DNA of 42,433 nt from Bacteroidales bacterium (GTDB lineage: Bacteria > Bacteroidota > Bacteroidia > Bacteroidales > P3). Shown in pieces: positions 5,462 to 42,433 of this stretch. Location: NCBI GenBank assembly GCA_024400545.1, contig JAKSMO010000018.1, forward strand, positions 1 to 42,433, in the 5' to 3' direction. Below the pieces are notes generated by a model. The model saw only the letters and a program-made list of their open reading frames with translations, was not told where the DNA came from and made no database searches. Within the stretch, counting starts at the first letter, position 1; each line of letters opens with the position of its first letter. A program made the translations under genes and the position numbers.

Positions 5462-5494
5462 GACTTCTCATTTTTCTCATTATACCGCCAAACT

Positions 5495-6967: not shown

Positions 6968-6982
6968 GATTTGAGTCCGATA

Positions 6983-8386: not shown

Positions 8387-8425
8387 CTATATATTTGTTT
8401 CAATAATATTTTACAAAAAAACGTG

Positions 8426-8433
8426 CAAAGATA
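8426..8433 (-). promoter_or_regulatory. -7 element of the rseP-lpt promoter
   Basis: CAAAGATA on the plus strand is TATCTTTG on the minus strand, 40 bases before the rseP start codon, giving a short leader of about 33 bases. Confidence 0.6.
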
Positions 8434-8689
8434 CGAAATATTATTCAATAATTCAGTTTTTTCATGCCTTTTGAATCGAATAACACCTTAACAAACTGTA
8501 TTTCAAACAATGAATACATTAAAATACCTTTTATGTAAAGACGCTTAAATCCGCATCACTTTGTGACTTTGAAGCTTCACCTCAATTTTGACCATCAAAG
8601 ACAAATATCTAATAAAATCAACCAAAGATGTATGGAAAAAATCAATACTGACATCTATCAATTTTTTTCAACAAATCATTTTTTTTGTG

Positions 8690-8697
8690 TATCTTTG
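8690..8697 (+). promoter_or_regulatory. -7 element of xerC, placing transcription start at or next to the start codon
   Basis: TATCTTTG ends only 5 bases before the GTG at 8703. An upstream TTG start at 8685 would lie upstream of the transcript, so the promoter decides the start and implies a leaderless or nearly leaderless message. Confidence 0.6.
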
Positions 8698-8702
8698 CAA
8701 AT

Positions 8703-9641
8703 GTGAAAATAGTCGAAGCCATAGAACTCTTTGCCACCTATATCGGCAGTGAACGTCGATTGGCCGAAGGAACTTTGAAGTATTATGTCAAGGTTTCTCA
8801 AGAACTTAGCGACTATTTATGCGAACAAAAGATAACAACAATCGAGGAAATAACAGCCAACGATATTCGGGGATGGATGATGTCGCAGATTGATCAGGGT
8901 ACGGCAGCTAGCACCATAGTAAAAAAGACCGCAGCACTACGGTCTTTGTTCAAATATCTACTCAAAGAAAAGTATCTGCACAACGACATTATGGTAAAAA
9001 TAGCGCCTCCTAAAACCCCTAAAAGGCTGCCTGTCTTCTTTCGGGAAAGCGAGGCCGAACATATATACGATGACCGCTACCCTGATACATTTGACGGGGA
9101 AACGCATAAACTGGTACTGCGAATGCTTTACGAAACGGGCATGCGCCGTTCAGAATTGGCCATGCTACCATTGGGCAATATCGACTTTTCTGCCCGCACC
9201 ATCAAAGTACGTGGCAAAAGAAACAAAGAGCGCATTATTCCTATCGAAAATGAACTTGCAAACAATATTTCGCGATATATTGCGTTACGTAATCAAGTAC
9301 TCGCCGAGCGAGAGAGTCTAGAACCCACTGAAAGGTTGCTGGTGAACGGGAAAGGAAAACCGCTAAGCGATGGCATGATCTACAAAATTGTGCAAAGATA
9401 TATGTCGGGACTTAGCGACGCCGACCGCACAAGTCCACATGTTTTCCGCCACTCATTTGCCACCCACATGCTGAACGAAGGTGCAAACATTGACGCCATC
9501 AAAGAGCTTTTGGGCCACAGCGACCTGACTGCCACCGAGGTTTACACCCACGTGACAAGAGAACATTTGAAAGAGACTTATAAACATGCCCATCCAAGGG
9601 CAACTAAAAATAAGGAGGTTAATTATGATAACAACAATTAA
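8703..9641 (+). CDS. xerC: Tyrosine recombinase XerC/XerD family
   Basis: A 312-residue site-specific recombinase of the Xer type, which resolves chromosome dimers at dif. The N-terminal SAM-like core-binding domain (about 1-95) is followed by the catalytic domain with Arg in YETGMRRSELA, the beta-hairpin Lys in KVRGKRNKERIIPI, the HxxR pair in HVFRHSFATHML, the GHSDL histidine, and the nucleophile Tyr in TATEVYTHV. I place the start at GTG 8703 rather than TTG 8685, because the -7 promoter element covers 8690-8697 and the resulting N-terminus (MKIVEAIELFATYIG) fits the family. The 3' end overlaps hpf. Xer next to hpf and rpsU is a recurrent Bacteroidales neighbourhood. XerC versus XerD cannot be fixed by eye. 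Confidence 0.9.
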   Translation: MKIVEAIELFATYIGSERRLAEGTLKYYVKVSQELSDYLCEQKITTIEEITANDIRGWMMSQIDQGTAASTIVKKTAALRSLFKYLLKEKYLHNDIMVKIAPPKTPKRLPVFFRESEAEHIYDDRYPDTFDGETHKLVLRMLYETGMRRSELAMLPLGNIDFSARTIKVRGKRNKERIIPIENELANNISRYIALRNQVLAERESLEPTERLLVNGKGKPLSDGMIYKIVQRYMSGLSDADRTSPHVFRHSFATHMLNEGANIDAIKELLGHSDLTATEVYTHVTREHLKETYKHAHPRATKNKEVNYDNNN

Positions 9642-29239: not shown

Positions 29240-31555
29240 ATGAGAAAGTCATTTCTGGCAGCTATCGCCTTACTTTTTAGCCTTGGCACCACTGCCCAGG
29301 TGCTTCATTACGACCGCCCTGCGCAGTTTTTTGAGGAAGCGCTGGTAATTGGCAACGGCACCTTGGGCGGCATCGTGTATGGCGGCACCGAGGTGGACAG
29401 TATCAGCCTCAACGACATCACGTTGTGGACCGGCGAACCCGATTGCGTTAAGATTGACTCTGCGGCTTGTGCCAAGGCACTGAAGGAGGTTCGTAGTGCC
29501 TTATGGAGAGAGAATTATGCCAAAGCCAACGAGATGCAGAAAGGTCTGCAAGGGCATTATAGTGAGAATTATCAACCCCTTGGCACATTATATATCGAAT
29601 ATGACCGCAGCGGGAGTCAGATCAATGATTATCACCGTTCACTGGACCTTGGTAAGGCAATAGTCCAAAACAGTTACCTCGTTGATGGAGAACGTTTTGA
29701 ATCACATTATTTCTGCAACCATCCCGACAATGTGATGGCTGTGCAGCTATATGGCGTTGAACCTTTCGACTGTGTGCTGCGTTTCAACTCCCAGTTGCCG
29801 CACAACGTGCAAGTAAGGGGGAACGAGATTATCGTTGACGGATATGCCGCCTATCATTCTGTGCCTCATTACCTTTGGGCCAAAAAGTCGTTCTGGTACG
29901 ACCCAGCGCGCGGCATTCATTTTCGCACCATCATCCAAGTCATAAACCAAGCTATGGGGATGACTACTATCGAACAAGATGGCGACCGACTCAAAATCAA
30001 GAGTGGCAATGATATCGTGCTGCTCATCGCCAACGCCACTTCGTTCAATGGGTTTGACAAAGACCCTGTGAAAGAGGGTGCCGACTATAAGTCAATCGTT
30101 CGCAACCGCATAGACATGGCATCCGAAATCGGATTGGGGGCTCTGACATATAACCACCGCAACGACTACCAACAACTATTCAACCGTGTGCAACTGGATC
30201 TCGGCGCCACACCCGACAGCATTGCAAAACTGCCCACCGATGTGCAGCTCCGCCGCTATACCGACCTCCACGAGTACAACCCCGACCTGGAGGAAACGTA
30301 TTTCCAATACGGCAGATACCTGCTTATCAGCTGTTCGCGCACCCCCGAGGTACCCGCCAACCTGCAAGGTTTGTGGAACGAACAGATGCTGCCCCCCTGG
30401 AGCAGCAACTACACCACCAACATCAACCTCGGCGAGAACTATTGGGCCGCCGAGGTGGCCAATCTCAGCGAGTTGCACATGCCGTTGCTATCTTTCTTGA
30501 GAAATGTCAGCATCGGTGGTCGGCAGACGGCCCGCCGCATGTTCGGTGTGAAAGAAGGTTGGTGCCTGGGTCATAATTCCGACATCTGGGCTATGAGTGT
30601 GCCTGTGGGCGACCACAGTGGCGACCCTACCTGGGCCAACTGGAACATGGGCGGCACATGGCTCAGCACGCATATCTGGCAACATTATTCGTTTACACAC
30701 GATACAGCATTCCTGCACGAGTATTACCCCGTGCTCAAGGGGGCTGCGCAATTCTGCATGGGATGGCTGGTGGAGAAGGACAACTATCTCATAGCCATGC
30801 CCTCTACCTCGCCTGAGAATACCTATATTGCCCCCGACGGCTTCCGCGGCGGCACATTTTACGGCGGCACGGCCGACCGAGCCATGATTTGGCAGTGCCT
30901 GACCGATGCCGCAAAGGCGGCACAAGTGCTTGGCGACAACAATTTTGGCAAGCAATGCCAGGCCGTATGCCAAAAACTTGCGCCCTATAAGATTGGCAAC
31001 AAGGGCAATCTGCAGGAGTGGTACTACGACTGGGCTGATGCCGACCCGCATCACCGCCACCAGTCGCATCTCTTCGGCCTATACCCCGGCAACAGTATCT
31101 GTCCTATGAATGAAGATGACGATTTGCTGGCACAAGCCTGCCGACGCACACTGGAATTGCGCGGCAACGAAAGCACTGGCTGGAGTACCGGCTGGCGGGT
31201 CAACCTACACGCCCGACTGCTGGACGGCGAGAAGGCTTATGCCACCTACCGCAAACTGCTGCAATATATTAGCCCCGATGGATACCAGGGCAAAGATGCC
31301 CGCCGTGGTGGTGGCACCTACCCCAACTTACTAGATGCCCACAGTCCATTTCAGATTGATGGCAACTTCGGCGGCATGGCAGGCGTGGCCGAGATGCTGC
31401 TGCAAAGCGACGACGAGGGCAACATCTACCCCCTCCCTGCACTCCCCGAGGCCTGGAAACAGTCGGGCCGAGTGACCGGTCTCAAAGCCCGCGGTGGCAA
31501 AACCGTTGACATCGAATGGCACGACGGCAAAGTCACCAAATTGGATATCCGCTAA
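29240..31555 (+). CDS. GH95 alpha-L-fucosidase (1,2-alpha-fucosidase type)
   Basis: A 771-residue exported glycoside hydrolase family 95 enzyme that releases alpha-1,2-linked fucose (or, in some members, galactose) from host glycans or plant xyloglucan. The signal peptide is [20 protein letters not shown]. The N-terminal beta-sandwich begins [20 protein letters not shown]. The (alpha/alpha)6 domain holds the catalytic asparagines in [11 protein letters not shown] (about 390-400), the acid Glu in PSTSPENTY (about 524) and the Asp in [20 protein letters not shown] (about 705). All catalytic residues appear intact. No SusC/SusD pair is adjacent, so this is not a complete polysaccharide utilisation locus. 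Confidence 0.94.
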
Positions 31556-32355
31556 AGATTGAGCACCACTAAGGAATAGTCGTCCTTGTCCAGCACGCCC
31601 TGTCTTTGCAATGACAAAAGATGCGATTCAAAACGCTCTGCTGACTCCACCGAGGCCAGCAAGTCATCTAGTATCTTGTCAAAATCCATCGGCATTTGCT
31701 CCGCCACGGCCAGCAGTTGCCCATTGATGGTGCCTCTGTTCCGCTCATCCAATAGCTCTTGATAGTAATCGCCACAATGTGCCAACTCATAGCACATCAT
31801 GATGTAGTGCGACAAGGCGTCGCTGGCCGCAAACACCAGCGAATCTTCTCCCAAGGCAAACACCCCTGCGCGAAATCCCTCTTCCTCCAGCGGCTCTTTG
31901 CAATTAATCAGATGCGGTGGTTTGGAGAAATCGACAAGCTGGGTGAAACTATGCTCTAATCGCTTGGTATTTCGGGAGTAATGGAACACCACGCTGTCGC
32001 CATAGCTCACCCAAGGGCAACGCCCGTCTTCCATCCTCCAAGCTGCAGCCAAAGTGGCAAAAGAGCCCTCGTCGTAGTATTTCTGCACTAGCATCGCGTC
32101 GCCCATCTTGGCCTTCTCCTCATGTGCTTCGTAGAATGGTTCCCATATCTGGTCTATCCAATCATTCAGCTCATCGTAGGTGGTCAAAGGTCTGTTTTGC
32201 GGCAGGTTATTCATTAGGTATGCCGACCATTCATCGGCAAACACGCCGCAACCTCCCGCACCATCCGACACGGCTATGCAGTTCTCTGCCTCCAATATAG
32301 CATCTTCGTTGGCCAGATGTTCGCGGGGCTTGGCCAGGGTCATTCCTTTGCTCAT
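31552..32355 (-). CDS. PP2C-like serine/threonine protein phosphatase
   Basis: A 267-residue metal-dependent phosphatase of the PP2C fold. Motifs in order: NEDA (16-19), the metal Asp in [10 protein letters not shown] (D31), [10 protein letters not shown] (97-106), YGDSVVF, the second metal Asp in [10 protein letters not shown] (D179) and the C-terminal [10 protein letters not shown] (D258/D259). The protein should remove phosphates from Ser/Thr of partner proteins. The start is taken at ATG 32353-32355, two bases after the stop of the DarT-VWA gene; an alternative ATG eight codons upstream would overlap that gene. Its stop codon interlocks with the convergent GH95 stop. With the kinases and the VWA protein it completes a kinase/phosphatase/VWA set. 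Confidence 0.85.
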
Positions 32356-32357
32356 AA

Positions 32358-33824
32358 CTATTGGTTGTTGTTTACCCAAGTGCTCGACAGTGTGCCAATC
32401 TTCATCATCTTCACCAGGTGCTCCATGCCGGTGTTCACGCCCATGGCACGGTAGCGGATGTCGGCTTGCTTATCATCGCCAAACAACTGACGAATTTGTT
32501 CGTTGTAGTTCAATGGCAGCAGACTCGACATATTGAACAGTTTTTCGCCATAGCCGTTGCCGTTCAGCTCGCCCACGGTGGCTGGGAATGCTACAGCCTC
32601 GCTGTTGCCTTCTACAATATGCACATTGAACAGCAACACATTACCATCGTTGGTAAAGAGACTCTTCAACTCATTCGACACCTGCGCCATCTCATCGTGG
32701 CTCACATGGTTGTACTGGCCGTCGGTGATGTTGATGATGGTGGGCGGATAGCAGTCTTTGTCGGCATGGTCGGCCATCCACACTTCTAGTAGCTGCTGTG
32801 CTTTGCGGAAGGCCAGGTGCATGTGTGTCCACGAGCCGTCGTGCCGTGCACCTATCCATTGGTTTTTCTCCACCTCTTTCACACTGATACCCTTGCGGGT
32901 ACGCACCTCTTCGCGCACCGTGATTTTGCGGTAGGGGTTGTCTCTAATTTCTTGTGGAGTCACGAAGTCGCGCCCCGCCAAGTCGCCCTGCCATGCCGAG
33001 TAAGCCTCCTCGCCATAGCCTATCACGGCAATGTCGAAGTAGTGCCTTGTCTCGTCGCTCTTCACGCAGCGTTGTATCAACTCGTTTATCTGCCCATTGA
33101 CGATTCTGGCCACAGCTTCCGACATGGTCATATCCTCGCCGTTGAAGGTGGTCAGTCGCTTCATCGACACGCTCTGATCCACCAAGAAGATGAATGCCGT
33201 GGGGTGCTCTCGGTCAATGCGGGCGGTGTAGGCGTTCTTGCTCTGCAATGCCTGAGGCTGGTTGGGAATGGGAATGCCGAAATTACCTATGTTGGTGATG
33301 GCCGACAGCGGTATCTTGCCTTTCACCAATATCTCGGCCTGGAAGTAGGGCTGCTCGTTGGCATCCAAGTCAAAGTGCTTGCGAGCCTTCACCGAGTTGA
33401 AATGTATGCTCTTGAAATCATTCAACGTATTACCCACATTCGCTTCACCTCTTGTGGCGTTCATGTTGGCATAGCGGGTCTCGGGGTCGTATATCACGCT
33501 GGGGTCAATCTCCAAGATTACGGGGTTGCTGATGCGGCCCTCGTTCATGGCCACATACATCATAGGGTGCTGGGTGGTGAAACTCACCCGCACATAATGG
33601 CTCAGTCCTGCCCGCTGGTCCAGTCCCCACGATAGCGAACCGGGACCGCCACCGCCGGGCTTGGCAATGCTGATGCCTTGGTCTTGGCAGTCGCCCCATG
33701 AGAGCAGGCCGCCATGCTTGATGATGGATTCCAAGTTGTCGCGGTCGGTAAAATGATACAACTTGGTGATATGGTGTTGGTTGAGGATGGCTTTGAATTC
33801 CTCCCAGTTACTGCGTTTGTTCAT
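32358..33824 (-). CDS. DarT-like ADP-ribosyltransferase fused to a von Willebrand A domain
   Basis: A 488-residue two-domain protein. Residues 15-175 match the DarT (DUF4433) pattern: the NAD-binding start LYHFTDRDNLESIIKHGGLL, the core strand HYVRVSFTTQHPMMYVAM, and the catalytic-type glutamate E164 in YFQAEILVKGKIPLSAI. DarT enzymes attach ADP-ribose to thymidine (or guanosine) of single-stranded DNA. Residues 207-440 form a VWA domain with a full metal-ion-dependent adhesion site: D216-x-S218-x-S220 (FLVDQSVSM), T333 (GSWTHMHLAF) and D368 (NITDGQYN). VWA domains bind protein partners. The fusion suggests that the toxin-like domain is delivered or restrained through the VWA part. The base specificity is not determinable. 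It follows DUF6939 by 12 bases and precedes PP2C by 2. Confidence 0.82.
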   Translation of the reverse strand: MNKRSNWEEFKAILNQHHITKLYHFTDRDNLESIIKHGGLLSWGDCQDQGISIAKPGGGGPGSLSWGLDQRAGLSHYVRVSFTTQHPMMYVAMNEGRISNPVILEIDPSVIYDPETRYANMNATRGEANVGNTLNDFKSIHFNSVKARKHFDLDANEQPYFQAEILVKGKIPLSAITNIGNFGIPIPNQPQALQSKNAYTARIDREHPTAFIFLVDQSVSMKRLTTFNGEDMTMSEAVARIVNGQINELIQRCVKSDETRHYFDIAVIGYGEEAYSAWQGDLAGRDFVTPQEIRDNPYRKITVREEVRTRKGISVKEVEKNQWIGARHDGSWTHMHLAFRKAQQLLEVWMADHADKDCYPPTIINITDGQYNHVSHDEMAQVSNELKSLFTNDGNVLLFNVHIVEGNSEAVAFPATVGELNGNGYGEKLFNMSSLLPLNYNEQIRQLFGDDKQADIRYRAMGVNTGMEHLVKMMKIGTLSSTWVNNNQ

Positions 33825-33836
33825 ATTATAATAGTA

Positions 33837-34430
33837 TTAGTTGAATAGGTCCAGTTGGTTGTCATCGTTGGTTTTCTGCCCGAAGGGATATGTGCCTTCC
33901 ACGTAAGCCTTTATCAATGCGGCGTGTGATAGGGGCTTCTTCGGGTTATCTACATCGGCGTTGGTCTCATAGTCCAGCAGCACTATGGTCTTGGTCTTTG
34001 TTGCCTCCCGCAGTCGGGCTATGATGTCCTGCACCTTGTTCTCCAGCACCCATTGATAGGTGGGGATATAAATCTTCTTACGTGCCGTGATATAGTCTAG
34101 CAGCTCGGTGCTGTCCAAGCCGTACTGGTGGCCTAAGGGCTTGCCGTATTTGCGCACGGTGCGCTTGATGTTCTTCATCGTGTCGTTGCCAAACATCGCC
34201 ACATCCACCCCGCATGATTCAAACACCTTCAGTCCCTGCCAGATGGCTTCCACACAAGCGGCTTTCACCCCATGCGAGTTGGGCACAGGTATGCCACCGT
34301 GGGGGTAGAAAGGGCTCAGCTTCACCAGCTGTGCATTGTCCGACTTGCTTGTCACGTCAGCAATCACAGCCCCAGGGTAAAGCTTCTGCAGCGTCTCTAT
34401 TTTCTTTCTTTTTGATTCTATGATTATCAT
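33837..34430 (-). CDS. DUF6939-like protein, possible NADAR-type ADP-ribosyl hydrolase
   Basis: A 197-residue cytoplasmic protein that I recognise as the DUF6939 group. By eye its core (residues 37-180) follows the order of NADAR/YbiA proteins: KLSPFYPHGGIPVP (compare NADAR FSNF-P-I), CVEAIWQGLKVF (compare SEHYFQAQKF; E61), KRTVRKYGKPLGH (compare AARMGR), a helical AxxxKF-like stretch TARKKIYIPTYQWVLENKVQ, and SHAALIKAYVEG. NADAR enzymes remove ADP-ribose from guanosine and act as antitoxins to DarT-type toxins in some operons, which would fit its place beside the DarT-like gene. The C-terminus NQLDLFN contains a sliding-clamp-type QLxLF motif. The NADAR relation is inference. The start overlaps the upstream gene by ATGA. 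Confidence 0.7.
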   Translation of the reverse strand: MIIIESKRKKIETLQKLYPGAVIADVTSKSDNAQLVKLSPFYPHGGIPVPNSHGVKAACVEAIWQGLKVFESCGVDVAMFGNDTMKNIKRTVRKYGKPLGHQYGLDSTELLDYITARKKIYIPTYQWVLENKVQDIIARLREATKTKTIVLLDYETNADVDNPKKPLSHAALIKAYVEGTYPFGQKTNDDNQLDLFN

Positions 34431-36226
34431 GGCTTCGTGTTATTGGAGCGTTTTAATTTATCGGATATGACTTTGCCTTGTGGGGTAAGCCGGTATTTCT
34501 GTTTGGAACTATTAGGTTTGTCAGTCTGTGTGGGCGTGATGAACTGGATTTTAATAAGCGGTGATAGGATATGTTGGCGGAAATAACTGCGACTTGCCAA
34601 ACCAAGAAATGACATCATTTCAGCCATGGCGACATCGCCTTTTATGAGTTGTAGCAGTTTCTTTTGATTAGGACTAAGCCTAATCTGTAAGGTGTCTCCA
34701 ACTTGGTCACTGACTTGGTCACTAACTTGGTCACTAACTTGGTCACTAACTTGATCACTAACTTGATCACTAACTTGATCACTAACTTGGTCACTAACTT
34801 GGTCATTAACTTGGTCACTAGTTTGATACTCTATAATACTATTAGATGCTATCTGTACGCTATCTGATTGAGAAATAATGCGAATAGAACTGCCCTTGCC
34901 GCTCTTGCACACAATCACTCCCATTTCTCTCAATGCAGAAATGTCACGTTCGATGGTGCGTGTGCTCACCGACAAAGACTCCGACATCTGTTTGTCGGTG
35001 ATTGTCGGTGTGGTCTTAATCAAGTTGAGTATCTTGTGCTGTCGCTCGGTGATTCTGATGTCCGGCAAGGCTTCGACATTGGGCTCTGTCGGTGATGCGT
35101 AAATCGTAGTCTGGAATTGGGTTGGAGTGGATGAGAATCTAGGCATCAATTCGTCTTTATAACCCTCCAAAGCTTTTGTCTCATTGCAAATTCGAGTAAG
35201 GCCACTGCCGCGTTTCTCCATATAGTCAAGCTGAGCCATGACATTGGCGAGTATCGGATTGCGTCTTTCTGAGGACACATTGTCAATATCAAGATTCTGT
35301 ATAAGCATGCCGTTGTACATTCCTCCTGGCGATGTGACTGTCAGTCGATCATCATAGATGTCAAGATGCACTTCTCCGCCCATCACAGTATAGTCTCTGT
35401 GTATGAAATGATTCACCATCGCTTCCAACACTGCGCGTTCGGCATACTCGGGCTTGTTCTTGCGTCCTTTGGGCAATTTCTCCCACCCATTTTTCGTGTT
35501 TGACTTGATGAAGTTGATCGCCTCTCGCAGCAACAGAAGGATGTTCCCCGTAAATTCCGCATCATTAATAGCATCACTCTTTCCTTTTCCATCCCACCGG
35601 GTGCAGTAAAGGCGCGATTGCCATAAAGGACAGTCGTCTGCGAAAAGCGCACCGGCATTAGTCAGGGTATCTGCGTTGGTCACAAGCCCAAACGAAATAA
35701 GGAACTTTTTATTCCAATCCCGAGTAGTGCGTTTCTTAAACTCGTTAGCCAGAATGATAAAGGTGTTGTCGGCAGCTTTATAATCAGACACCAGCGAGTC
35801 GTAGGTTTTGTTCGACCCCTTAAGTACGAGTCTGACCATTTGTTCTGCCGTTGCAGGGATGCTCTCGTCTCCAATACGGACAAACGCAATACGCTGTCCG
35901 TCCCCTATATAATAATATGGAGTGTAGCTGCCTGGTTTAACCTTGAGTTGTAGGATATTGACACCTTCGATGTGGTGGGGTATCATCTCCACTTCGGGCA
36001 GAGGATCCATATAGTCTCGAATCTTACTGCTGATAGTCTCGCATACATGCTGTACATCAGGCAATCCTTTCGCATGGCCATCGTTGGTTATGCCAAATAG
36101 CAAAGAGCCGCCTGAGCCGTTGGCAAAGGCGCTAACACTTTTCATCCAACTCTTAGGCCTCTTTTCTTCAAGCATCTCCTTGAAATCGTACGCGGTACAT
36201 TCGCTGATAAGATTTTCTATTTTCAT
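34427..36226 (-). CDS. AlbA_2/Schlafen-type ATP-binding regulator with winged helices and a DQV repeat
   Basis: A 599-residue protein. The N-terminal AlbA_2 (Schlafen-like DNA/RNA-binding) domain shows YDFKEMLE, SVSAFANGSGGSLLFGITND and FVRIGDESIPATAEQMVRLV. A GHKL-type ATPase segment follows (about 260-370; AERAVLEAMVNHFIHRDYTV, GVHLDIYDDRLTVTSPGGMY-like strand, MEKRGSGLTRI). A winged-helix region (about 388-440; ITDKQMSESLSVSTRTIERD) is followed by ten SDQV-type tetrapeptides (469-508) and a second winged-helix-like tail. Such proteins are common putative regulators in Bacteroidota and are frequent beside defence and mobile genes. It is coupled to DUF6939 by a 4-base overlap and is the first gene of the four-gene downstream set. 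Confidence 0.85.
   Translation of the reverse strand: MKIENLISECTAYDFKEMLEEKRPKSWMKSVSAFANGSGGSLLFGITNDGHAKGLPDVQHVCETISSKIRDYMDPLPEVEMIPHHIEGVNILQLKVKPGSYTPYYYIGDGQRIAFVRIGDESIPATAEQMVRLVLKGSNKTYDSLVSDYKAADNTFIILANEFKKRTTRDWNKKFLISFGLVTNADTLTNAGALFADDCPLWQSRLYCTRWDGKGKSDAINDAEFTGNILLLLREAINFIKSNTKNGWEKLPKGRKNKPEYAERAVLEAMVNHFIHRDYTVMGGEVHLDIYDDRLTVTSPGGMYNGMLIQNLDIDNVSSERRNPILANVMAQLDYMEKRGSGLTRICNETKALEGYKDELMPRFSSTPTQFQTTIYASPTEPNVEALPDIRITERQHKILNLIKTTPTITDKQMSESLSVSTRTIERDISALREMGVIVCKSGKGSSIRIISQSDSVQIASNSIIEYQTSDQVNDQVSDQVSDQVSDQVSDQVSDQVSDQVSDQVSDQVGDTLQIRLSPNQKKLLQLIKGDVAMAEMMSFLGLASRSYFRQHILSPLIKIQFITPTQTDKPNSSKQKYRLTPQGKVISDKLKRSNNTKP
34701..34820. repeat. Ten tandem copies of a 12-bp repeat (ACTTGGTCACTA)
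   Basis: The unit is repeated ten times with G/A exchanges at few positions and one C/T change; it encodes (S/N)DQV four-residue units. Twelve bases is a multiple of three, so unit gain or loss changes repeat length without frameshift. Confidence 0.95.
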
Positions 36227-36332
36227 TTAATCTGTGTACTTGTTGATTTACTACTAATTGGGATAACTCAATTTGCTAGATTTTATTATATGACTGCTTC
36301 CAGCTCAATCCAACATATCGACAAGGTTTCCT

Positions 36333-38417
36333 TTAGTCAGTTATTATTTTCACTTTTTGGAGGTCAACACCTGTGCCTTCAAGCAGTTTCGGATTCTTGA
36401 TTTTGATGAACTGCAACCTGCTGCAACCATCGAAAGTATACTCCCCAATCTCCGTGACCGAATCGGGGATGACGATGAACTGCAAACTGCTGCAACCATC
36501 GAAAGCATACTCCCCAATCTCCGTGACCGAATCGGGGATAACGATGGACTGCAAACTGCTGCAACCAAAGAATGCACCTCCCCTAATTTCCGTGACCGAA
36601 TCGGGGATGACGATGGACTGCAAACTGCTGCAACCACCGAAAGTATTAGACCAAATTTCCGTGACCGAATCGGGGATGACGATGGACTGCAAACTGATGC
36701 AATCCTTGAAAGTTGCTCCACATATCTCCGTGACCGAATCAGGGATGACAATGGTCTGCAAATTGCTGCAACCATCGAAAGCATACCCCCCAATTTGAGT
36801 GACCGAAGTGGGGATGACGATGGACTGCAAACTGCTGCAACCATTGAAAGCGCCGATCCAAATCTCCGTGACCGAAGTGGGGATGACGATGGACTGCAAA
36901 CTGCTGCAACCATAGAAAGCATACTCCCCAATCTCCGTGACCGAATCGGGGATGTCGATGGACTGCAAGCTGCTGCAACCAGCGAAAGCTAATTTCCCAA
37001 TCTCCGTGACCGAATCAGGGATGACGATGGACTGCAAACTGCTGCAACCACGGAAAGCATTATACTCAATCTTTGTGACCGAATCCGGGATGGCGATGGA
37101 CTGCAAACTGCTGCAATCATCGAAAGCATGATCCCCAATCTTGGTGACCGAATCCGGGATGACGATAGACTGCAAACTGCTGCAACCAGAGAATGCCCCG
37201 CTCCTAATTTCCGTGACCGAATCGGGGATGACGATGGACTGCAAGCTGCTGCAACCAACGAAAGCATTATGATTAATTCCAACTACTTGGTATTTTGCAA
37301 TCTTGCGAGGGATTGTAATTTTGCCAATCGGTTTGGAAGAATTAAGCCAACCAGGTGTGAAATAGCTATCTGGTGCCACCACCCACACTTTTGAATTATC
37401 CTCCTTATCATATTTAAAATACAGGCAGTTGCCGTCTTTGAACTGGATGTGGATGTTGGAGTTGGGGGTGGGTTCGTTGATGATGATATAGTCGAGCTCT
37501 TCGGCTTTGGGCTTGCTGAGGTTGAAGAGGCGGAAGGAGAGGTGCTGGAGGGTCTTTTGGCTGAGGGCGGCAAGGAATTGGCTGGCAAGGGTGGCAAACT
37601 CTTTGTCATACATCAGCTGCTGGAGTTTGGTCCATATCTGGCTCTTTGACAAGTCGCGGTAGTCGTCGGCGGAGAACAATAGTCGGTCGGTGCCGCCACA
37701 ATGGGTATAGAACGCGTCATCCAGAGCTATGGCCTTGAGCGAGAGTGCCGTGGTGGACAGGGCAAAGTCGTCGATGGTCTCGTCGAAGTCCTCCACGGTG
37801 CGCTCGGGATGGGAGAAGTCGCGGGTGCCCAGGGTGGGCGACTGCTGCCCCTTCATGGCTGGCACAAACATGCCGTCGTAATCCACTAGGGTCAGCGAGC
37901 CATCGGGCCGCACAATCACATTGTCCGGCTTGATGTCGCCATGTGCCAGGGACTGAGATCGCAGCCATGCCGCCATGCGGCAGAAACGATAGCAGAGCCA
38001 CTGCATCTTGGTGGAATCCTGATGATTCTCACGGATGTATTGCTCCATGGTGATGCCCTCCACCCAGTCCATGAGCAGCACGGGGAACTCGGACTCGTCG
38101 GCACAAGAACTATCCACAAACAACTCCTTGTCGTAGTACTGCACGGCGGTGATATAGGGCGAATCTACAGCCGACAGTTCCTCGGCAATCAGGCGGTAGG
38201 CCTCGGCACGGCCCGACTGCTCCTCGGTGAAGCACTTGAGGGCGTAGCATTTGCCCGAAGCGGGGTCTTGCATCTTGAACACCACGGCAAAAGCACCGCT
38301 GCTGCGGTAAGGCTCGCCATGGTCGTCCAGCACAGGGCGTAGGTGCGCAAGCTTGTCGAGATTATCCTCGGCGGATGCCACAGATTGCAGATATTCAGTG
38401 ATTAGCGGATAGTTCAT
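36333..38417 (-). CDS. Serine/threonine kinase-like protein with C-terminal BspA-type leucine-rich repeats (paralog A)
   Basis: A 694-residue cytoplasmic protein (no signal peptide). The kinase domain (about 30-230) has the glycine loop SSGAFAVVF (39-47), the ATP lysine K61 (YALKCF), the catalytic loop HGDIKPDN (159-166; D161, K163, N166) with Gly in place of the HRD Arg, and LVDYDGMFVP with DYD in place of DFG (D179). A linker (about 313-385, DGNCLYFKYDKEDNSKVWVV) leads to twelve 23-residue BspA-type repeats of the form CSSLQSIVIPDSVTEIG-x(2)-AF-x-G. BspA repeats are usually on surface or secreted proteins, so their place on a cytosolic kinase is unusual; they could sense a ligand or bind the partner proteins. 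It has its own -7 promoter and a near-identical paralog upstream. Confidence 0.85.
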   Translation of the reverse strand: MNYPLITEYLQSVASAEDNLDKLAHLRPVLDDHGEPYRSSGAFAVVFKMQDPASGKCYALKCFTEEQSGRAEAYRLIAEELSAVDSPYITAVQYYDKELFVDSSCADESEFPVLLMDWVEGITMEQYIRENHQDSTKMQWLCYRFCRMAAWLRSQSLAHGDIKPDNVIVRPDGSLTLVDYDGMFVPAMKGQQSPTLGTRDFSHPERTVEDFDETIDDFALSTTALSLKAIALDDAFYTHCGGTDRLLFSADDYRDLSKSQIWTKLQQLMYDKEFATLASQFLAALSQKTLQHLSFRLFNLSKPKAEELDYIIINEPTPNSNIHIQFKDGNCLYFKYDKEDNSKVWVVAPDSYFTPGWLNSSKPIGKITIPRKIAKYQVVGINHNAFVGCSSLQSIVIPDSVTEIRSGAFSGCSSLQSIVIPDSVTKIGDHAFDDCSSLQSIAIPDSVTKIEYNAFRGCSSLQSIVIPDSVTEIGKLAFAGCSSLQSIDIPDSVTEIGEYAFYGCSSLQSIVIPTSVTEIWIGAFNGCSSLQSIVIPTSVTQIGGYAFDGCSNLQTIVIPDSVTEICGATFKDCISLQSIVIPDSVTEIWSNTFGGCSSLQSIVIPDSVTEIRGGAFFGCSSLQSIVIPDSVTEIGEYAFDGCSSLQFIVIPDSVTEIGEYTFDGCSRLQFIKIKNPKLLEGTGVDLQKVKIITD
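36400..37275. repeat. Tandem 69-bp leucine-rich-repeat units in kinase paralog A
   Basis: Twelve or so units of 69 bases, each containing the words GACTGCAAACTGCTGCAACC, GAAAGC and TCCGTGACCGAATCGGGGAT with few differences. The length of unit (23 codons) and the encoded IPDSVTEI motif show that it is coding. Confidence 0.95.
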
Positions 38418-38424
38418 AGGGCAT
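37375..38424. repeat. Duplicated kinase segment, copy A (partner 41291-42340)
   Basis: A 1050-base stretch aligned without any gap to 41291-42340 (constant offset 3916), covering the kinase domain, the start codon and the bases CATAGGGCAT just before it. Identity is very high by eye with scattered third-position changes. Confidence 0.9.
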
Positions 38425-38446
38425 ATTCTTTATTGTAACGGCACTG

Positions 38447-38454
38447 CAAAGATA
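38447..38454 (-). promoter_or_regulatory. -7 element of kinase paralog A
   Basis: CAAAGATA on the plus strand is TATCTTTG on the minus strand, 30 bases before the start codon. It is probably the promoter of paralog A and possibly of the genes down to PP2C. Confidence 0.6.
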
Positions 38455-38586
38455 CGAAATATCCCCCATATTTGCTAAATGATTGCTGCATATCGATTAT
38501 TATTTCCTCCAAGGTGTGTGGCTCTAGTCCATCATTGACAGGGTCTATGTGCGTGATGCGATTGCCCATAAAGACAATCGTATAGC

Positions 38587-38864
38587 GGGCTGAAAGCCCA
38601 ATTATTTCCATAGCCCAAGGCAACGCCCTGGGACGGTGTTGATGTTTGTTTCCATCTCGCCCTGAAAGGGCAAAAGTATGAAACATTATGTGCGGATATA
38701 TTTTGTTCAATAGATTGTGACATGTCGAATTATGTTATTCAAGGTGTTGTCGGATTGTACTTATGCCCTTTCAGGGCGTTTGGTGTGGGCGGGGTCTCTG
38801 TTTCCCAGGGTGCCGCTGCGCTATACCCTGGGCTATGGACGTTGTGCGATTGCCCTTTCAGGGC
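38587..38864. repeat. Inverted pair of non-coding palindromic repeat elements
   Basis: Left copy (38587-38671): GGGCTGAAAGCCC, then TAGCCCAAGGCAACGCCCTGGG, then GCCCTGAAAGGGC. Right copy (38765-38864): GCCCTTTCAGGGC, then CCCAGGGTGCC-x-TATACCCTGGGCTA, then GCCCTTTCAGGGC. The right copy is the diverged reverse complement of the left. Fragments encoding RALPWAME-type peptides from such elements are often mis-annotated as short proteins in Bacteroidota and other phyla. Confidence 0.8.
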
Positions 38865-38964: not shown

Positions 38965-41900
38965 TTAGTCAGTTATTATTTTCACTTTTTCGAGGTCGAC
39001 ACCTGTGTATTCAAGCAGTTTCGGATTCTTGATTTTGATGAACTGCAAACTGCTGCAATCTTCGAAAGCACCATATCCAATCATCGTGACAGAATCGGGG
39101 ATGACGATGGACTGCAATCTGATGCAACCTTGGAAAGCCCACCCAATAATCTTCGTGACAGAATCGGGGATGATTAAGGACTGCAACATGCGGCAATCTG
39201 AGAAAGCACCTTCACCAATCTCAGTGACCGAGTCTGGAATGACGATGGACTGCAACATGCGGCAATTAAAGAAAGTCCATTCCCCAATCTCCGTGACCGA
39301 ATCGGAGATGGCAATGGACAGCAAACTGCTGCAACAATAGAAAGCGCCTTCCCCAATCTCCGTGACTGAATCGGGGACGACGATGGACTGCAAACTGCTG
39401 CAACCATAGAAAGCACTCTTCCCAATCTCTGTGACCGAATCAGGGAGGACGATGGATCGCAAACTGCTGCAACAAGAGAAAGCAGACCTCCCAATCTTCG
39501 TGACCGTATCGGGAATGAATGTGTTTTTGCATCCGGCAATCAAAATGTTGTCGGATGTCTTGATAATGGCATTGCAATTGTTTCGGCTATCGTATTTGGG
39601 GTTCTTATTATCCACAATGATGGACTGCAAACAGCTGCAACCAGAGAATGGACCATCTCCAATTTCCGTAACTGAATCGGGGATGACGATGGACTGCAAA
39701 CTGCTGCAACCTCTGAAAGCACTCCGCCTAATCTCTGTGACCGAATCTGGAATCACGATGGTCTGCAAACTGCTGCAATGATAGAAAGCACCTTCCCCAA
39801 TCTCCGTGACCGAATCAGGGATGACGATGGACTGCAAACTGCTGCAACCAGAGAATGCATTCTCCCCAATCTTCATAACCGAATCTGGAATCACGATAGA
39901 TTGTAAATTGTTACAATCACGGAAAGTAGATTCTCCAATCTCAGTAACCAAGTCGGGAATAACGATGGTCTGCAAACTGCTGCAACCAGAGAAAGCATAT
40001 TCACCAATCTTCATAACCGAATCTGGAATCACGATAGACTGCAAATTATTACAGCCACAGAAAGTAGATTCCCCAATCTCCGTGACAGAATCGGGGATGA
40101 CAGTGTTTGGACAACCGGCAATCATTTTGTTGCTTGCAGTCTCAATAATGGCATTACAATTGTTTCGGCTGTCGTATTTTGGATTGTTACTATCTACAAC
40201 GATGGTCTGCAAACTGCGGCAACAATCGAAAGCGTGTCCGCGAATCTCCGTGACCGAATCGGGAATGATGATGAACTGCAAACTGATGCAATGACTGAAA
40301 GCCTCACTCCAAATCTGCGTGACCGAATCGGGGATAACGATGGACTGCAAACTGCTGCAACCAAGGAAAGCAGATCTATCAATTCCAATCACTTGGTACT
40401 TTGTCATCTTGCAAGGAATGGCGACCTTGCCAATAGGTTTGGAATATTCTTGCCAATCAGGATGGTTATAATATCTGTCAAAATCCGGTGTCACCACCCA
40501 CACCTTTGAATTATCATCTTTATCATGTTTAAAATACAAGCAGTTGCCGTCTTCAAACTGGATGTGGAAGTCGGAGTTGGGGGTGGGTTCGTTGATTATC
40601 TCATAATTTTGCCCTTCGTCATTGGGCAGGATTTTTATTCTTGATAGATCTGCTCTTGAACCTTCCAATAATTGCAGATTGTTGATTTTGATAGACTGCA
40701 AACTGCTACAATTAAAGAAAGCAGATTTCCCAATCTTCTTGACCGAATCAGGGATGACGATAGACAGCAAACTGCTGCAACCAGAGAAAGCAGATCTCTC
40801 AATCTCCATGACCGAATCAGGAAAGTCGATGGACTGCAAGCTGCTGCAATATAAGAAAGCATCACTCCCGATTTTTGTGACCGAATTAGGGATGGCAATA
40901 GACTGCAAACTGCTACACTCCCTGAATGCGGACGTTCCAATTTCCGTGACAGAATCAGGGACGGCTGTGCTTTGGCAACCAATAATCAAGATGTTACTTG
41001 CGGTCTCAATAATGGCATTGCAATTGTTTCTGGTATCGTATTTCGGATTGTTGTTATCAACGATGATGGACTGTATACTGATGCAACCTTGGAAAGCCCC
41101 CCACTCAATCTGTGTGACAGACTCAGGGATAAATATTGAATGTAAAGTGTCACATCCAGCGAAAGCCTCTTCTTCAATACCGATAACAAGGTATTTTGAT
41201 ATAGTTTTAGGAATCACAAGGTCTCTATTGGGTTTTTCAAATTTCCCCCATTCAACCCCTTCGTCAAATTCACAACCCCACAGAGAGGGCGCCACCACCC
41301 ACACCTTTGACTTATCATCCTTGTCATATTTGAAATACAGGCAGTTGCCGTCTTTGAACTGGATGTGGAAGTTGGAGTTGGGGGTGGGCTCGTTGATGAT
41401 AATATAGTCTAGTTCTTCGGCTTCGGGTTTGCTGAGGTTGAAGAGGCGGAAGGATAGGTGCTGGAGGGTCTTCTGGCTGAGGGCGGCAAGGAATTGGCTG
41501 GCAAGGGTGGCGAATTCTTTGTCATACATCAGCTGCTGGATCTTGGCCCATATCTGGCTTTGCGATAGGTCGCGGTAGTCATCGGCGGAGAACAATAGCC
41601 GGTCGGTGCCGCCACAGTGGGTATAGAACGCTGCATCTAGGGCTATGGCTTTGAGCGAGAGCGCCGTGGTGGCCAGGGCAAAGTCGTCGATGGTCTCGTC
41701 GAAGTCCTCCACGGTGCGCTCGGGGTGAGAGAAGTCGCGGGTGCCCAGGGTGGGCGACTGCTGCCCCTTCATAGCTGGCACGAACATGCCGTCGTAATCG
41801 ACTAGGGTCAGCGAGCCATCGAGCCGCACAATCACATTGTCCGGCTTGATGTCGCCATGAGCTAAGGCTTGGGATCGCAGCCATGCCGCCATGCGACAAA

Positions 41901-42333
41901 AGCGATAGCAAAGCCACTGCATCTTGGTGGAATCCTGATGATTCTCACGGATGTACTGCTCCATGGTGATGCCCTCTACCCAGTCCATGAGCAGCACGGG
42001 GAACTCGGTCTCGTCGGCGCAAGAGCTATCCACAAATAGCTCCTTGTCGTAGTACTGCACGGCGGTGATATAGGGCGAATCTACAGCCGACAGTTCCTCG
42101 GCAATCAGGCGGTAGGCCTCGGCACGACCCGACTGCTCCTCGGTGAAGCACTTGAGGGCATAGCATTTGCCCGAAGCGGGGTCCTGCATCTTGAACACCA
42201 CAGCAAAGGCACCGCTGCTGCGGTAAGGCTCGCCATGGTCGTCCAGCACGGGGCATAGGTGCGCAAGCTTGTCGAGATTGTCCCCGGCGGATGCCACAGC
42301 TTGCAGATATTCAGTGATTAGCGGATAGTTCAT
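38965..42333 (-). CDS. Serine/threonine kinase-like protein with two blocks of BspA-type leucine-rich repeats (paralog B)
   Basis: A 1122-residue protein with the same plan as paralog A. The first 350 residues are almost identical, with G-loop SSGAFAVVF, K61, HGDIKPDN, LVDYDGMFVP. Then come linker 1 (about 312-385), a first repeat block (about 385-565) with PKYDTRNNCNAIIETASN, a second copy of the linker (about 577-650, DGNCLYFKHDKDDNSKVWVV) and a long second repeat block to the end. Two more PKYDSRNNCNAII islands interrupt that second block. The start is ATG 42331-42333; a longer frame to 42399 runs over the upstream symporter stop codon region and is rejected. The gap to the symporter stop is 22 bases, so it may be read from the symporter transcript. 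Confidence 0.85.
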   Translation of the reverse strand: MNYPLITEYLQAVASAGDNLDKLAHLCPVLDDHGEPYRSSGAFAVVFKMQDPASGKCYALKCFTEEQSGRAEAYRLIAEELSAVDSPYITAVQYYDKELFVDSSCADETEFPVLLMDWVEGITMEQYIRENHQDSTKMQWLCYRFCRMAAWLRSQALAHGDIKPDNVIVRLDGSLTLVDYDGMFVPAMKGQQSPTLGTRDFSHPERTVEDFDETIDDFALATTALSLKAIALDAAFYTHCGGTDRLLFSADDYRDLSQSQIWAKIQQLMYDKEFATLASQFLAALSQKTLQHLSFRLFNLSKPEAEELDYIIINEPTPNSNFHIQFKDGNCLYFKYDKDDKSKVWVVAPSLWGCEFDEGVEWGKFEKPNRDLVIPKTISKYLVIGIEEEAFAGCDTLHSIFIPESVTQIEWGAFQGCISIQSIIVDNNNPKYDTRNNCNAIIETASNILIIGCQSTAVPDSVTEIGTSAFRECSSLQSIAIPNSVTKIGSDAFLYCSSLQSIDFPDSVMEIERSAFSGCSSLLSIVIPDSVKKIGKSAFFNCSSLQSIKINNLQLLEGSRADLSRIKILPNDEGQNYEIINEPTPNSDFHIQFEDGNCLYFKHDKDDNSKVWVVTPDFDRYYNHPDWQEYSKPIGKVAIPCKMTKYQVIGIDRSAFLGCSSLQSIVIPDSVTQIWSEAFSHCISLQFIIIPDSVTEIRGHAFDCCRSLQTIVVDSNNPKYDSRNNCNAIIETASNKMIAGCPNTVIPDSVTEIGESTFCGCNNLQSIVIPDSVMKIGEYAFSGCSSLQTIVIPDLVTEIGESTFRDCNNLQSIVIPDSVMKIGENAFSGCSSLQSIVIPDSVTEIGEGAFYHCSSLQTIVIPDSVTEIRRSAFRGCSSLQSIVIPDSVTEIGDGPFSGCSCLQSIIVDNKNPKYDSRNNCNAIIKTSDNILIAGCKNTFIPDTVTKIGRSAFSCCSSLRSIVLPDSVTEIGKSAFYGCSSLQSIVVPDSVTEIGEGAFYCCSSLLSIAISDSVTEIGEWTFFNCRMLQSIVIPDSVTEIGEGAFSDCRMLQSLIIPDSVTKIIGWAFQGCIRLQSIVIPDSVTMIGYGAFEDCSSLQFIKIKNPKLLEYTGVDLEKVKIITD
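39000..40390. repeat. Tandem 69-bp leucine-rich-repeat units, second block of paralog B
   Basis: About eighteen 69-base units, the longest such array in the window, broken by longer spacer islands encoding PKYDSRNNCNAII. Units are more diverged than in paralog A. Confidence 0.85.
40680..41180. repeat. Tandem 69-bp leucine-rich-repeat units, first block of paralog B
   Basis: A shorter array of about six units before the second linker copy, containing one PKYDTRNNCNAII island. Confidence 0.8.
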
Positions 42334-42340
42334 AGGGCAT
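41291..42340. repeat. Duplicated kinase segment, copy B (partner 37375-38424)
   Basis: The second copy of the 1050-base segment. Similarity stops just before the start codon of each gene, so the promoter region was not duplicated. Confidence 0.9.
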
Positions 42341-42355
42341 AATATTTGACATTCG

Positions 42356-42433
42356 TTATTCCGCAGACTCGGTGTTCTCGCCTCTAATCTTATCAACAAT
42401 CAGGGCGATGGCGCCATCGCCGGTGACATTGCC
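42356..42433 (-). CDS. Dicarboxylate/amino acid:cation symporter, C-terminus (cut by window edge)
   Basis: Only the last 25 codons and the TAA stop are inside the window. The minus-strand frame reads GNVTGDGAIALIVDKIRG and ends ENTESAE. The NVTGD-x-x-A-x-x-IV motif is the end of the last transmembrane region in the GltP/DctA sodium- or proton-coupled dicarboxylate and glutamate transporters. The assignment rests on this short motif. The stop lies 22 bases before the start of kinase paralog B. Confidence 0.65.
   Translation of the reverse strand, partial: GNVTGDGAIALIVDKIRGENTESAE

What the first reader, a model, noticed from the sequence alone, without database searches (positions are those of the whole stretch)
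31552..38417. Candidate new system: kinase, PP2C phosphatase and a VWA protein that carries a DarT-like toxin domain
Kinase + PP2C + VWA protein is the composition of the TerY-P phosphorylation triad known from Ter stress-response neighbourhoods. Here the VWA partner is fused to a DarT-like nucleic-acid ADP-ribosyltransferase (full VWA metal site, candidate catalytic E164), and the set includes a possible reversal enzyme and an AlbA_2 regulator. The genes are on one strand with 4-base overlap, 12-base and 2-base gaps from the regulator to PP2C. Domain calls are seen in the sequence; the role of phosphorylation as the on/off switch of a DNA- or RNA-modifying toxin is inference.
Basis: partly seen in the sequence, partly recalled or inferred. 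Interest (0 to 1): 0.9.

Follow-up and report, generated by a model that had tools for sequence, protein, structure and literature searches.

The report
Kinase-gated DNA-marking toxin in gut bacteria
In gut Bacteroidales a toxin predicted to tag DNA with ADP-ribose is built into the same protein as the vWA part of a kinase/phosphatase switch and sits next to the enzyme predicted to erase the tag, which suggests a bacterial self-arrest or anti-phage alarm controlled by phosphorylation.

Summary
On one strand lie a kinase with leucine-rich repeats, an AlbA_2 gene, DUF6939, a 488-residue protein and a PP2C phosphatase. The 488-residue protein is DarT (Pfam E 3.8e-40) joined to a TerY vWA domain (PADLOC E 3.8e-48). 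The fusion occurs in 58 distinct loci (41 clusters at 90% identity), nearly all labelled Bacteroidota. PP2C follows in 57 of 58, DUF6939 is present in 55 of 58, a kinase in 40 of 40 loci with at least 2 kb upstream; the gaps are at contig ends. DarT E164, N122, M88 and the vWA metal site are invariant in 56 of 56.

New here: the AlphaFold model of DUF6939 has one significant PDB match, the DarT1-associated NADAR antitoxin 8bat, and its counterparts of the NADAR catalytic/rescue residues (E61, K68, K89, D153) are invariant in 64 of 64. So this looks like a DarT-NADAR toxin-antitoxin pair captured by a TerY-P phosphorylation triad. AlbA_2 is an accessory. Phosphorylation as switch, guanine as target and phage defence are inference. 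My library searches found no paper describing it.

The parts
31552..32355 (-). PP2C-type phosphatase (267 aa from the ATG at 32355; the ORF listing gives a TTG at 32379)
   Evidence: PADLOC TerY-P PP2C E 1.8e-12; acidic metal-site residues E17, D18, D31, D120, D179 the same in 56 of 56 PP2Cs aligned and D258, D259 in 55 of 56 (one of the 56 is from L024, not a fusion locus); adjacent downstream in 57 of 58 fusion loci
32358..33824 (-). DarT-TerY fusion protein, 488 aa
   Evidence: AlphaFold model pLDDT 80.9 with a low-confidence linker 191-202
33201..33758 (-). DarT ADP-ribosyltransferase domain (residues 23-208 by Pfam); E164, N122, M88 invariant
   Evidence: PF14487 E 3.8e-40; profile match to 8baq DarT1 E 1.2e-9; Foldseek 7omy DarT E 8.6e-8; residues 56 of 56
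32382..33233 (-). TerY-type von Willebrand A domain (residues 198-481) with full MIDAS D216-x-S218-x-S220, T333, D368
   Evidence: PADLOC TerY E 3.8e-48; vWA folds in Foldseek; 56 of 56
33837..34430 (-). DUF6939, 197 aa: NADAR-fold predicted ADP-ribose eraser (antitoxin); E61, K68, K89, D153
   Evidence: PF22075 E 1.5e-75, PF22397 NADAR-DarT1 E 4.7e-5 below cut-off; Foldseek 8bat NADAR E 2.4e-4, prob 1.00; 64 of 64
34427..36226 (-). AlbA_2/Schlafen + HATPase_c_4 + HTH protein, 599 aa: accessory gene, not core
   Evidence: PF04326 E 3.5e-20; AlbA_2-like gene in this slot in 8 of 41 loci
36333..38417 (-). Ser/Thr kinase (residues 1-300) with C-terminal BspA-type LRR array, 694 aa
   Evidence: Pkinase E 1.2e-11, LRR_5 E 2.7e-106; STK_OB E 6.7e-50 on the kinase part
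38965..42333 (-). Second, paralogous LRR kinase (likely ATG at 42333; ORF listed from TTG 42399, 34 bases from the contig end)
   Evidence: kinase domain 96% identical to the first; Pkinase E 4e-11

Best explanation
This is a DarT-NADAR-type toxin-antitoxin pair that has been wired into a TerY-P phosphorylation switch. The DarT domain transfers ADP-ribose from NAD+ to a nucleic-acid base (most likely guanine in single-stranded DNA, as DarT1 does); DUF6939, a NADAR-fold hydrolase, removes the mark and keeps the cell safe at rest. The toxin is fused to the TerY vWA domain, the component that the operon's kinase(s) and PP2C most plausibly act on or through. One or more kinases with a constant catalytic domain and interchangeable C-terminal sensor parts detect a trigger (most likely phage infection); phosphorylation releases the toxin beyond what DUF6939 can reverse, stopping replication, and PP2C resets the switch. 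Shown by sequence or model: domains, intact active sites, operon, conservation, NADAR fold. Inferred: catalysis, guanine, the direction of the switch, what is phosphorylated, the trigger, defence.
For: Domains. Operon conserved in 58 loci: PP2C 57 of 58, DUF6939 55 of 58, kinase 40 of 40 loci with at least 2 kb upstream (one of them, L048, a weak kinase match), every component found on the same strand (L048). Catalytic residues of DarT and MIDAS 56 of 56, PP2C metal residues; kinase D of HGD 61 of 66, D of DFG-like 65 of 66. DUF6939: only significant PDB fold match is 8bat, the DarT1-associated NADAR antitoxin of G. lovleyi (PMC11543638 passage); E61-x6-K68, K89 and D153 match in order the E88-x6-K95, K115 and D171 that PMC11543638 tests by mutation; 10 of 10 distinct DUF6939 loci in two genome tallies sit in ADP-ribose contexts: 7 beside DarT, 1 fused to NADAR, 2 beside NADAR. 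Purifying selection: fusion dN/dS 0.02-0.12 in the 6 close pairs computed. Sensor diversity: 70 kinase C-terminal parts match LRR_5 in 42 and Sel1 in 14, others FGE, WG, TPR; 10 of 71 kinases have a strongly hydrophobic segment beyond residue 300. DarT+DUF6939 without TerY exists as a pair in L094-L097, L025 and L113, and a locus with PP2C, TerY, DUF6939 and a PP2C-DarT frame exists in L024. In 12 of 12 other TerY loci of a phylum sample no DarT match lies within the stretch held. Known TerY-P protects P. aeruginosa PAO1 against phage (PMC10889362 passages), and the kinase/phosphatase toxin-antitoxin KKP is phage-triggered (PMC11341870 passages).
Against: No experiment. No phosphosite is identified; phosphorylation of the fusion is assumed. 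No relative was found in viral contigs by the pattern scan or in phage records at E 1e-5, and no plasmid record holds 80% of the fusion (15 hold one part), so there is no direct link to phage biology. Guanine specificity is unsure: by sequence profile DarT1 (8baq) is closest, by fold the DarT of Thermus (recalled as the thymine-specific type 2) scores better (8.6e-8 against 8.8e-6 for 8baq). DUF6939 fails the Pfam cut-off for NADAR-DarT1 (9 of 34 members match at E 0.01), hhalign with few NADAR sequences gave nothing significant, and the TM-score to 8bat is only 0.55/0.50. K89 and D153 are mapped by order and predicted strand, not by superposition. R71, the likely counterpart of R52 of DarT1, is R in 42 of 56. 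In five of 66 kinases the HGD motif is missing in my alignment. PP2C exchange is seen in some close pairs only.
Confidence: 0.6

Rival explanations
1. A plain DarT/NADAR toxin-antitoxin pair: DUF6939 alone controls the toxin, and the TerY domain is only a scaffold or targeting part; kinase and PP2C regulate something else (for example transcription through an accessory gene).
For: DarT+DUF6939 exist without TerY in L094-L097, L025 and L113; stand-alone DarTs carry quite different extra parts (coiled-coil-like and others, judged by eye), so DarT does not need TerY.
Against: Every fusion locus that is long enough has a kinase, PP2C and DUF6939 together; the MIDAS site is invariant; the last kinase often abuts a DUF6939 copy (23 of 41 gaps of 107 bases or less, three of them to a fragment).
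Confidence: 0.2
2. A stress- or growth-control module rather than phage defence: the kinases sense envelope, metal or metabolic state and the DarT mark slows replication reversibly.
For: TerY-P was tied to tellurite resistance and a metal-sensing switch was hypothesised (PMC11090510 passage); DarT of M. tuberculosis coordinates stationary-phase growth (PMC12170906, start of abstract).
Against: Patchy distribution: 4 of 393 genomes of the order carry the full fusion, own included, and the other genome of its genus in that tally lacks it; partners are exchanged between some loci; slot genes include AbiH, RhuM and YhcG.
Confidence: 0.25
3. The target is not DNA guanine but RNA, thymine or a protein; DUF6939 removes that mark.
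For: NADARs also reverse guanosine-ADP-ribose in RNA (PMC11833690 abstract and passages); a Thermus DarT is the best fold match; a gene whose scanned member has DUF1810 lies downstream in 20 loci, in 19 of them right after PP2C, and an ADP-ribosylglycohydrolase-like gene lies in the flanks of 5 (one member scanned), which may point to a second kind of mark.
Against: DUF6939 has an Asp (D153) where DarT1-associated NADARs have one; the NADARs tested reverse guanosine and not thymidine marks (PMC11125620 passages).
Confidence: 0.3

Closest known systems
TerY-P (TerY-phosphorylation triad; Gao et al. 2020, not read, seen through PMC7699616, PMC11090510, PMC10889362 passages)
   Same: vWA (TerY) + PP2C + Ser/Thr kinase; PADLOC TerY, PP2C and STK_OB models all match.
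   Different: TerY is fused to DarT; a NADAR-fold eraser lies in the operon; the kinase C-terminus is LRR, Sel1 or other instead of OB-fold or zinc ribbon; several kinases in 21 of 43 loci.
DarTG1 (DarT1-NADAR), PMC11543638
   Same: DarT-family transferase next to a NADAR-fold protein with matching active-site residues.
   Different: DarT is fused to a vWA domain; the eraser is DUF6939, which does not reach the Pfam cut-off for NADAR-DarT1; kinase(s) and PP2C are constant neighbours.
KKP kinase-kinase-phosphatase toxin-antitoxin system (PMC11341870)
   Same: Kinase(s) and a phosphatase in one operon; toxicity set by their balance; phage-triggered.
   Different: In KKP the kinases are the toxin; here a separate ADP-ribosyltransferase is attached to the vWA.
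vWA-MoxR ternary conflict systems (PMC7159879)
   Same: Variable effector domains fused to a vWA protein.
   Different: No MoxR ATPase among the six proteins of the locus scanned; effector at the N-terminus; kinase/PP2C instead of ATPase.

Membership tests
TerY-P triad | TerY-type vWA domain with MIDAS | tested here: met
   PADLOC TerY E 3.8e-48; MIDAS 56 of 56
TerY-P triad | PP2C phosphatase next to it | tested here: met
   57 of 58 loci; metal residues
TerY-P triad | Ser/Thr kinase next to it | tested here: met
   STK_OB E 6.7e-50; 40 of 40 loci with at least 2 kb upstream
TerY-P triad | Kinase C-terminal OB-fold or zinc ribbon, as in the described variants (PMC11090510) | tested here: not met
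   STK_OB match stops at position 271 of 562; C-termini LRR_5 42, Sel1 14 of 70, no OB or zinc-ribbon family among the 25 families shown of 45
TerY-P triad | TerY as a stand-alone protein | tested here: not met
   Fused to DarT in 58 loci
TerY-P triad | Anti-phage activity | not testable with these tools
   needs phage challenge
DarTG1 (DarT1-NADAR) | DarT fold with catalytic glutamate | tested here: met
DarTG1 (DarT1-NADAR) | Closer to DarT1 than to DarT2 | tested here: inconclusive
   Sequence profile favours DarT1 8baq; fold score favours the Thermus DarT 7omy
DarTG1 (DarT1-NADAR) | NADAR antitoxin gene beside it | tested here: inconclusive
   Fold match to 8bat and invariant E/K/K/D but below the Pfam NADAR-DarT1 cut-off
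DarTG1 (DarT1-NADAR) | Reversible guanine ADP-ribosylation | not testable with these tools
   needs enzyme assays
KKP | Paired kinases that are themselves the toxin, with the phosphatase as antitoxin | tested here: not met
   22 of 43 loci show one kinase in the stretch read; a separate ADP-ribosyltransferase is fused to the vWA

The most novel reading that the evidence does not exclude
A modular bacterial immune-receptor pathway: several kinases with one constant catalytic domain and interchangeable, fast-changing sensor parts (LRR, Sel1, FGE-type, membrane-spanning) converge on a single phosphorylation-gated DNA-marking toxin with its own eraser, while the PP2C is exchanged between lineages because phage proteins attack it. 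It would give the TerY-P triad its first covalently attached effector.
Probability: 0.35. Interest if true: 0.92.

Novelty: new variant of a known kind. Interest (0 to 1): 0.8.

Why it matters
What TerY-P triads switch on is open in the passages I saw: they give a hypothesised switch and phage protection but no effector. Here the predicted effector is part of the vWA protein, so a phospho-controlled readout (toxicity, DNA ADP-ribosylation) becomes directly testable. It also suggests a function for DUF6939 (a NADAR-fold eraser; no paper in the library names it), and puts a DarT toxin under possible kinase/phosphatase control, a layer I did not see described for DarTG.

Tried and rejected
AlbA_2 as a core regulator: rejected, 8 of 41 loci (9 with L060). 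Conserved Y199-T200 as a linker phosphosite: dropped, because a stand-alone TerY starts with a like segment (L028). Positive selection on PP2C: rejected for the pairs where PP2C diverges; synonymous distances also jump (window versus L038 dS 0.107 for the fusion, 0.786 for PP2C), so exchange by recombination is the simpler reading. A phage or plasmid origin: no full-length match. A short ORF at 38414-38710: no match in the loci other than itself. Sequence-only links from DUF6939 to NADAR by hhalign: not significant; a viral-contig scan for NADAR relatives found none. A PDB sequence search with the DUF6939 profile gave only chance hits.

Rows dropped before counts: duplicates L020, L021, L022 (same records as L092, L040, L082) and one of L050/L051 (identical last 300 residues in two contigs of one MAG; L050 kept, L051 in later calls); fusions cut by contig ends (L080, L089) in the 56; four DUF6939 fragments in the 64 (L055, L060, L088, L099), which holds also copies from non-fusion loci; PP2Cs too short or too long (L048, L067, one of L024) in the 56 PP2Cs; kinases with an open 5' end in the 66; kinases of five loci without the fusion in the 66, 70 and 71, and one more mostly unreadable one (L063) in the 70.
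Full report
OBSERVATION. The window is one whole contig of a draft genome (G000:C16; 96% complete, 8% contaminated). The nearest loci are a Bacteroidales MAG from horse faeces (L037) and 'Candidatus Colimorpha merdihippi' (L038), whose fusion proteins differ from the window's by 6 and 5 of 488 residues. Pfam finds DarT (PF14487, 3.8e-40) in the 488-residue protein, DUF6939 (1.5e-75) in the 197-residue protein, SLFN_AlbA_2 with HATPase_c_4 and HTH in the 599-residue protein, and Pkinase plus LRR_5 in the 694-residue protein. PADLOC adds TerY (3.8e-48) on the second half of the 488-residue protein, PP2C (1.8e-12), and the TerY-P kinase model STK_OB (6.7e-50) on the kinase part only, positions 1-271 of 562. 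A second LRR kinase lies upstream at 38965-42399, and its kinase domain is 96% identical to the first.

THE FUSION IS A CONSERVED FAMILY. A search of 393 genomes of the order gave matches in 18, four of them full-length fusions, own included; the others matched one domain (G067 has both, apart). A scan of genome contigs returned 63 loci. With the loci fetched earlier, 62 loci carry DarT and TerY in one open frame, 58 after removing duplicates, and 41 clusters at 90% identity. The records are labelled Bacteroidales, Prevotella, Porphyromonas, Parabacteroides, Bacteroides, Segatella and the like, except two bins labelled Lachnospiraceae (L064) and Clostridia (L089); the L064 DarT part is 99% identical to a Prevotella one, so that label is probably a binning error. 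In a tree of 66 DarT domains the 56 full-length fusions are clustered, with one truncated copy (L023) inside; eight stand-alone DarTs group together with modest support (83/92) and one long-branched DarT (L036) lies outside.

THE OPERON. PP2C follows directly in 57 of 58 loci; the exception ends inside the fusion. DUF6939 is present in 55 of 58; the three without it have 3, 61 and 196 bases upstream, and in L065 it lies after PP2C. A kinase is present in 42 of 58, and in 40 of 40 with at least 2 kb upstream (L048 by a weak match); every component found is on the same strand. In 23 of 41 loci with both genes the last kinase abuts a DUF6939 copy (gap -3 to 107 bases; a fragment in L055, L060 and L088). 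Otherwise a changing gene or a gap sits there: an AlbA_2-like gene in 8 of 41 (window, L046, L048, L062 by Pfam; L049, L061, L083, L090 by similarity), YhcG nuclease (L038, L091), AbiH (L079, and L093 by its start), RhuM (L078) or PLD (L059), and some without a name. So the core is kinase(s), DUF6939, DarT-TerY and PP2C, and AlbA_2 is an accessory.

ACTIVE SITES. In 56 full-length fusions DarT Y23, H24, R79, M88, N122 and E164 and the MIDAS residues D216, S218, S220, T333 and D368 are invariant. HMMER aligns E164 with the position that reads as the mutated E152 of E. coli C7 DarT1 and N122 with its N104, counting one residue of offset in the chain (residue roles and the E152A crystal from PMC11543638 passages). 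R71, the likely R52 counterpart, is R in 42 of 56; of the 14 others 13 have R at position 66 and one H. In 56 PP2Cs the acidic metal residues are kept (55 of 56 for the last pair). Of 66 kinases the HGD aspartate is kept in 61 and the DFG-like aspartate in 65. Between six close pairs the fusion has dN/dS 0.02-0.12, that is, strong purifying selection.

DUF6939 IS A NADAR-FOLD ERASER. Nine of 34 members match Pfam's DarT1-associated NADAR weakly (best 6.1e-6; the window's 4.7e-5 is below the curated cut-off). The AlphaFold model (pLDDT 92) has one match with E of 0.001 or less in the PDB: 8bat, E 2.4e-4, probability 1.00, TM 0.55/0.50, rmsd 4.4, 22% identity over 170 columns; PMC11543638 calls it the DarT1-associated NADAR antitoxin of G. 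lovleyi (passage). That paper (section 12 read) shows by mutation that E88, K95 and D171 of the C7 NADAR matter for hydrolysis or rescue and K115 for rescue. DUF6939 has E61-x6-K68 with the spacing of E88-x6-K95 (hhalign, though not significant, puts this segment on the like segment of a DarT1-type NADAR, L114), K89, and D153 at the end of the last strand; all four are invariant in 64 of 64. K89 and D153 are mapped by order and predicted strand, not by superposition. Context agrees: of 10 distinct DUF6939 loci in two genome tallies (7 of 393 order genomes and 4 of 395 phylum genomes, own counted in both) 7 sit beside DarT, one is fused to a NADAR domain (L110) and two lie beside a NADAR with genes that read like an ADP-ribosylglycohydrolase (L111) and SIR2 (L111, L112); Pfam was run on L110 and on the L111 NADAR only.

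THE FUSION MODEL. The AlphaFold model has pLDDT 80.9 with a low-confidence linker at 191-202. Foldseek finds DarT structures (Thermus 7omy 8.6e-8; M. tuberculosis DarTG complex 7yk3 4.6e-7; C7 DarT1 8baq 8.8e-6 with 25% identity) and many vWA domains. Whether the DarT is of type 1 or 2 is not settled by these tools.

SENSORS AND MOSAIC. The kinase catalytic part is alike across loci, but the C-terminal part changes: of 70 parts, 42 match LRR_5, 14 Sel1, two FGE-sulfatase, two WG repeats and others; 13 of 71 kinases have a strongly hydrophobic segment, 10 of them beyond residue 300. Of 43 loci with kinases, 22 show one, 15 two, five three and one four in the stretch read. In the window the LRR parts are 69-bp tandem repeats (12.5 copies in the first kinase). 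Window and L038 fusions differ by 5 residues (dS 0.107) but their PP2Cs by 44 of 266 (dS 0.786); L042 and L064 fusions by 6 of 480 but PP2Cs by 112 of 258. This is not general: of 11 pairs with DarT at least 97% identical, PP2C identity is 0.56-0.86 in five and 0.91-1.00 in six, and in two of the six pairs with dS computed (L037/L038, L076/L079) PP2C dS is not raised to that degree. So PP2C and sensor parts have been exchanged around a constant toxin in some lineages. In KKP a phage protein inhibits the phosphatase (PMC11341870 abstract and passages); whether that explains the exchange here is speculation.

EVOLUTION. L024 holds PP2C, TerY, DUF6939 and a frame with PP2C and DarT as neighbours, a different way of joining the two modules. 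Three stand-alone TerY loci of the same order have a kinase but no DarT match (L026, L028, L029). In a sample of 296 phylum genomes 13 have TerY, own included; in the 12 others no DarT match lies in the stretch held (about 1.5 kb each side), while a kinase matches in 8 and PP2C in 6. The simplest history is capture of a DarT/NADAR-type pair by a TerY-P triad.

LITERATURE. Library searches for DUF6939 (none), for DarT with TerY, vWA, kinase and phosphatase terms, for NADAR/DUF4433/DarT and for TerY-P listed no title or abstract that describes this fusion, and the passages I opened do not mention it. Only open-licence papers are held; Anantharaman 2012, Gao 2020 and LeRoux 2022 were not read. 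For PMC9503650, PMC7159879, PMC7699616, PMC4978471, PMC11125620, PMC11341870, PMC11833690, PMC11090510, PMC10889362 and PMC10910872 I saw passages only; for PMC11543638 passages and section 12; for PMC12170906 the start of the abstract in a search listing.

VERDICT. It is a new combination of known modules, with a newly assigned NADAR-fold eraser. The switch, the target base and the trigger remain to be tested.

Noticed in passing
L079:12233-13489 and downstream of the fusion in 19 other loci: A recurring gene (about 418 aa): the scanned member has an N-terminal part of phage family phrog_2072 (4.1e-33, unknown function) plus DUF1810 (1.3e-53; phmmer match to Rv1873, 2jek); in 19 of the 20 loci a copy starts 751-863 bases after the fusion, right after PP2C.
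   Followed up: partly
L079:15526-16329 and 4 other loci: ADP-ribosylglycohydrolase-like gene (PF03747, 1.2e-29 for L079; others by similarity) within the fetched flanks of 5 fusion loci.
   Followed up: no
L110:5814-7070; L111 and L112 around 4700-8900: DUF6939 fused to a NADAR domain (L110), and DUF6939 beside NADAR with genes that read like ADP-ribosylglycohydrolase (L111) and SIR2 (L111, L112): a separate ADP-ribose cassette.
   Followed up: partly
L024:2614-4131: PP2C and DarT in one 505-residue frame, next to DUF6939, TerY and a second PP2C.
   Followed up: partly
L023:9800-10447: DarT frame that ends just after the linker, with a kinase-like stretch upstream: probably a decayed copy of the system.
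   Followed up: no
window 34700-34819: Ten nearly identical xDQV units in the linker of the AlbA_2 protein.
   Followed up: no
window 36405-37267 and arrays within 39037-40959: 69-bp tandem repeats coding the LRRs of the two kinases; copy number may vary fast.
   Followed up: partly
window 38414-38710: 98-aa ORF between the two kinases, no match elsewhere in the loci.
   Followed up: yes
L095:9269-10540 and L094:1938-3209: Stand-alone DUF6939-paired DarTs carry long, coiled-coil-like N-terminal parts (judged by eye) instead of TerY.
   Followed up: no
L055, L060, L088, upstream of the fusion: Extra, partial DUF6939 copies beside the complete one.
   Followed up: no
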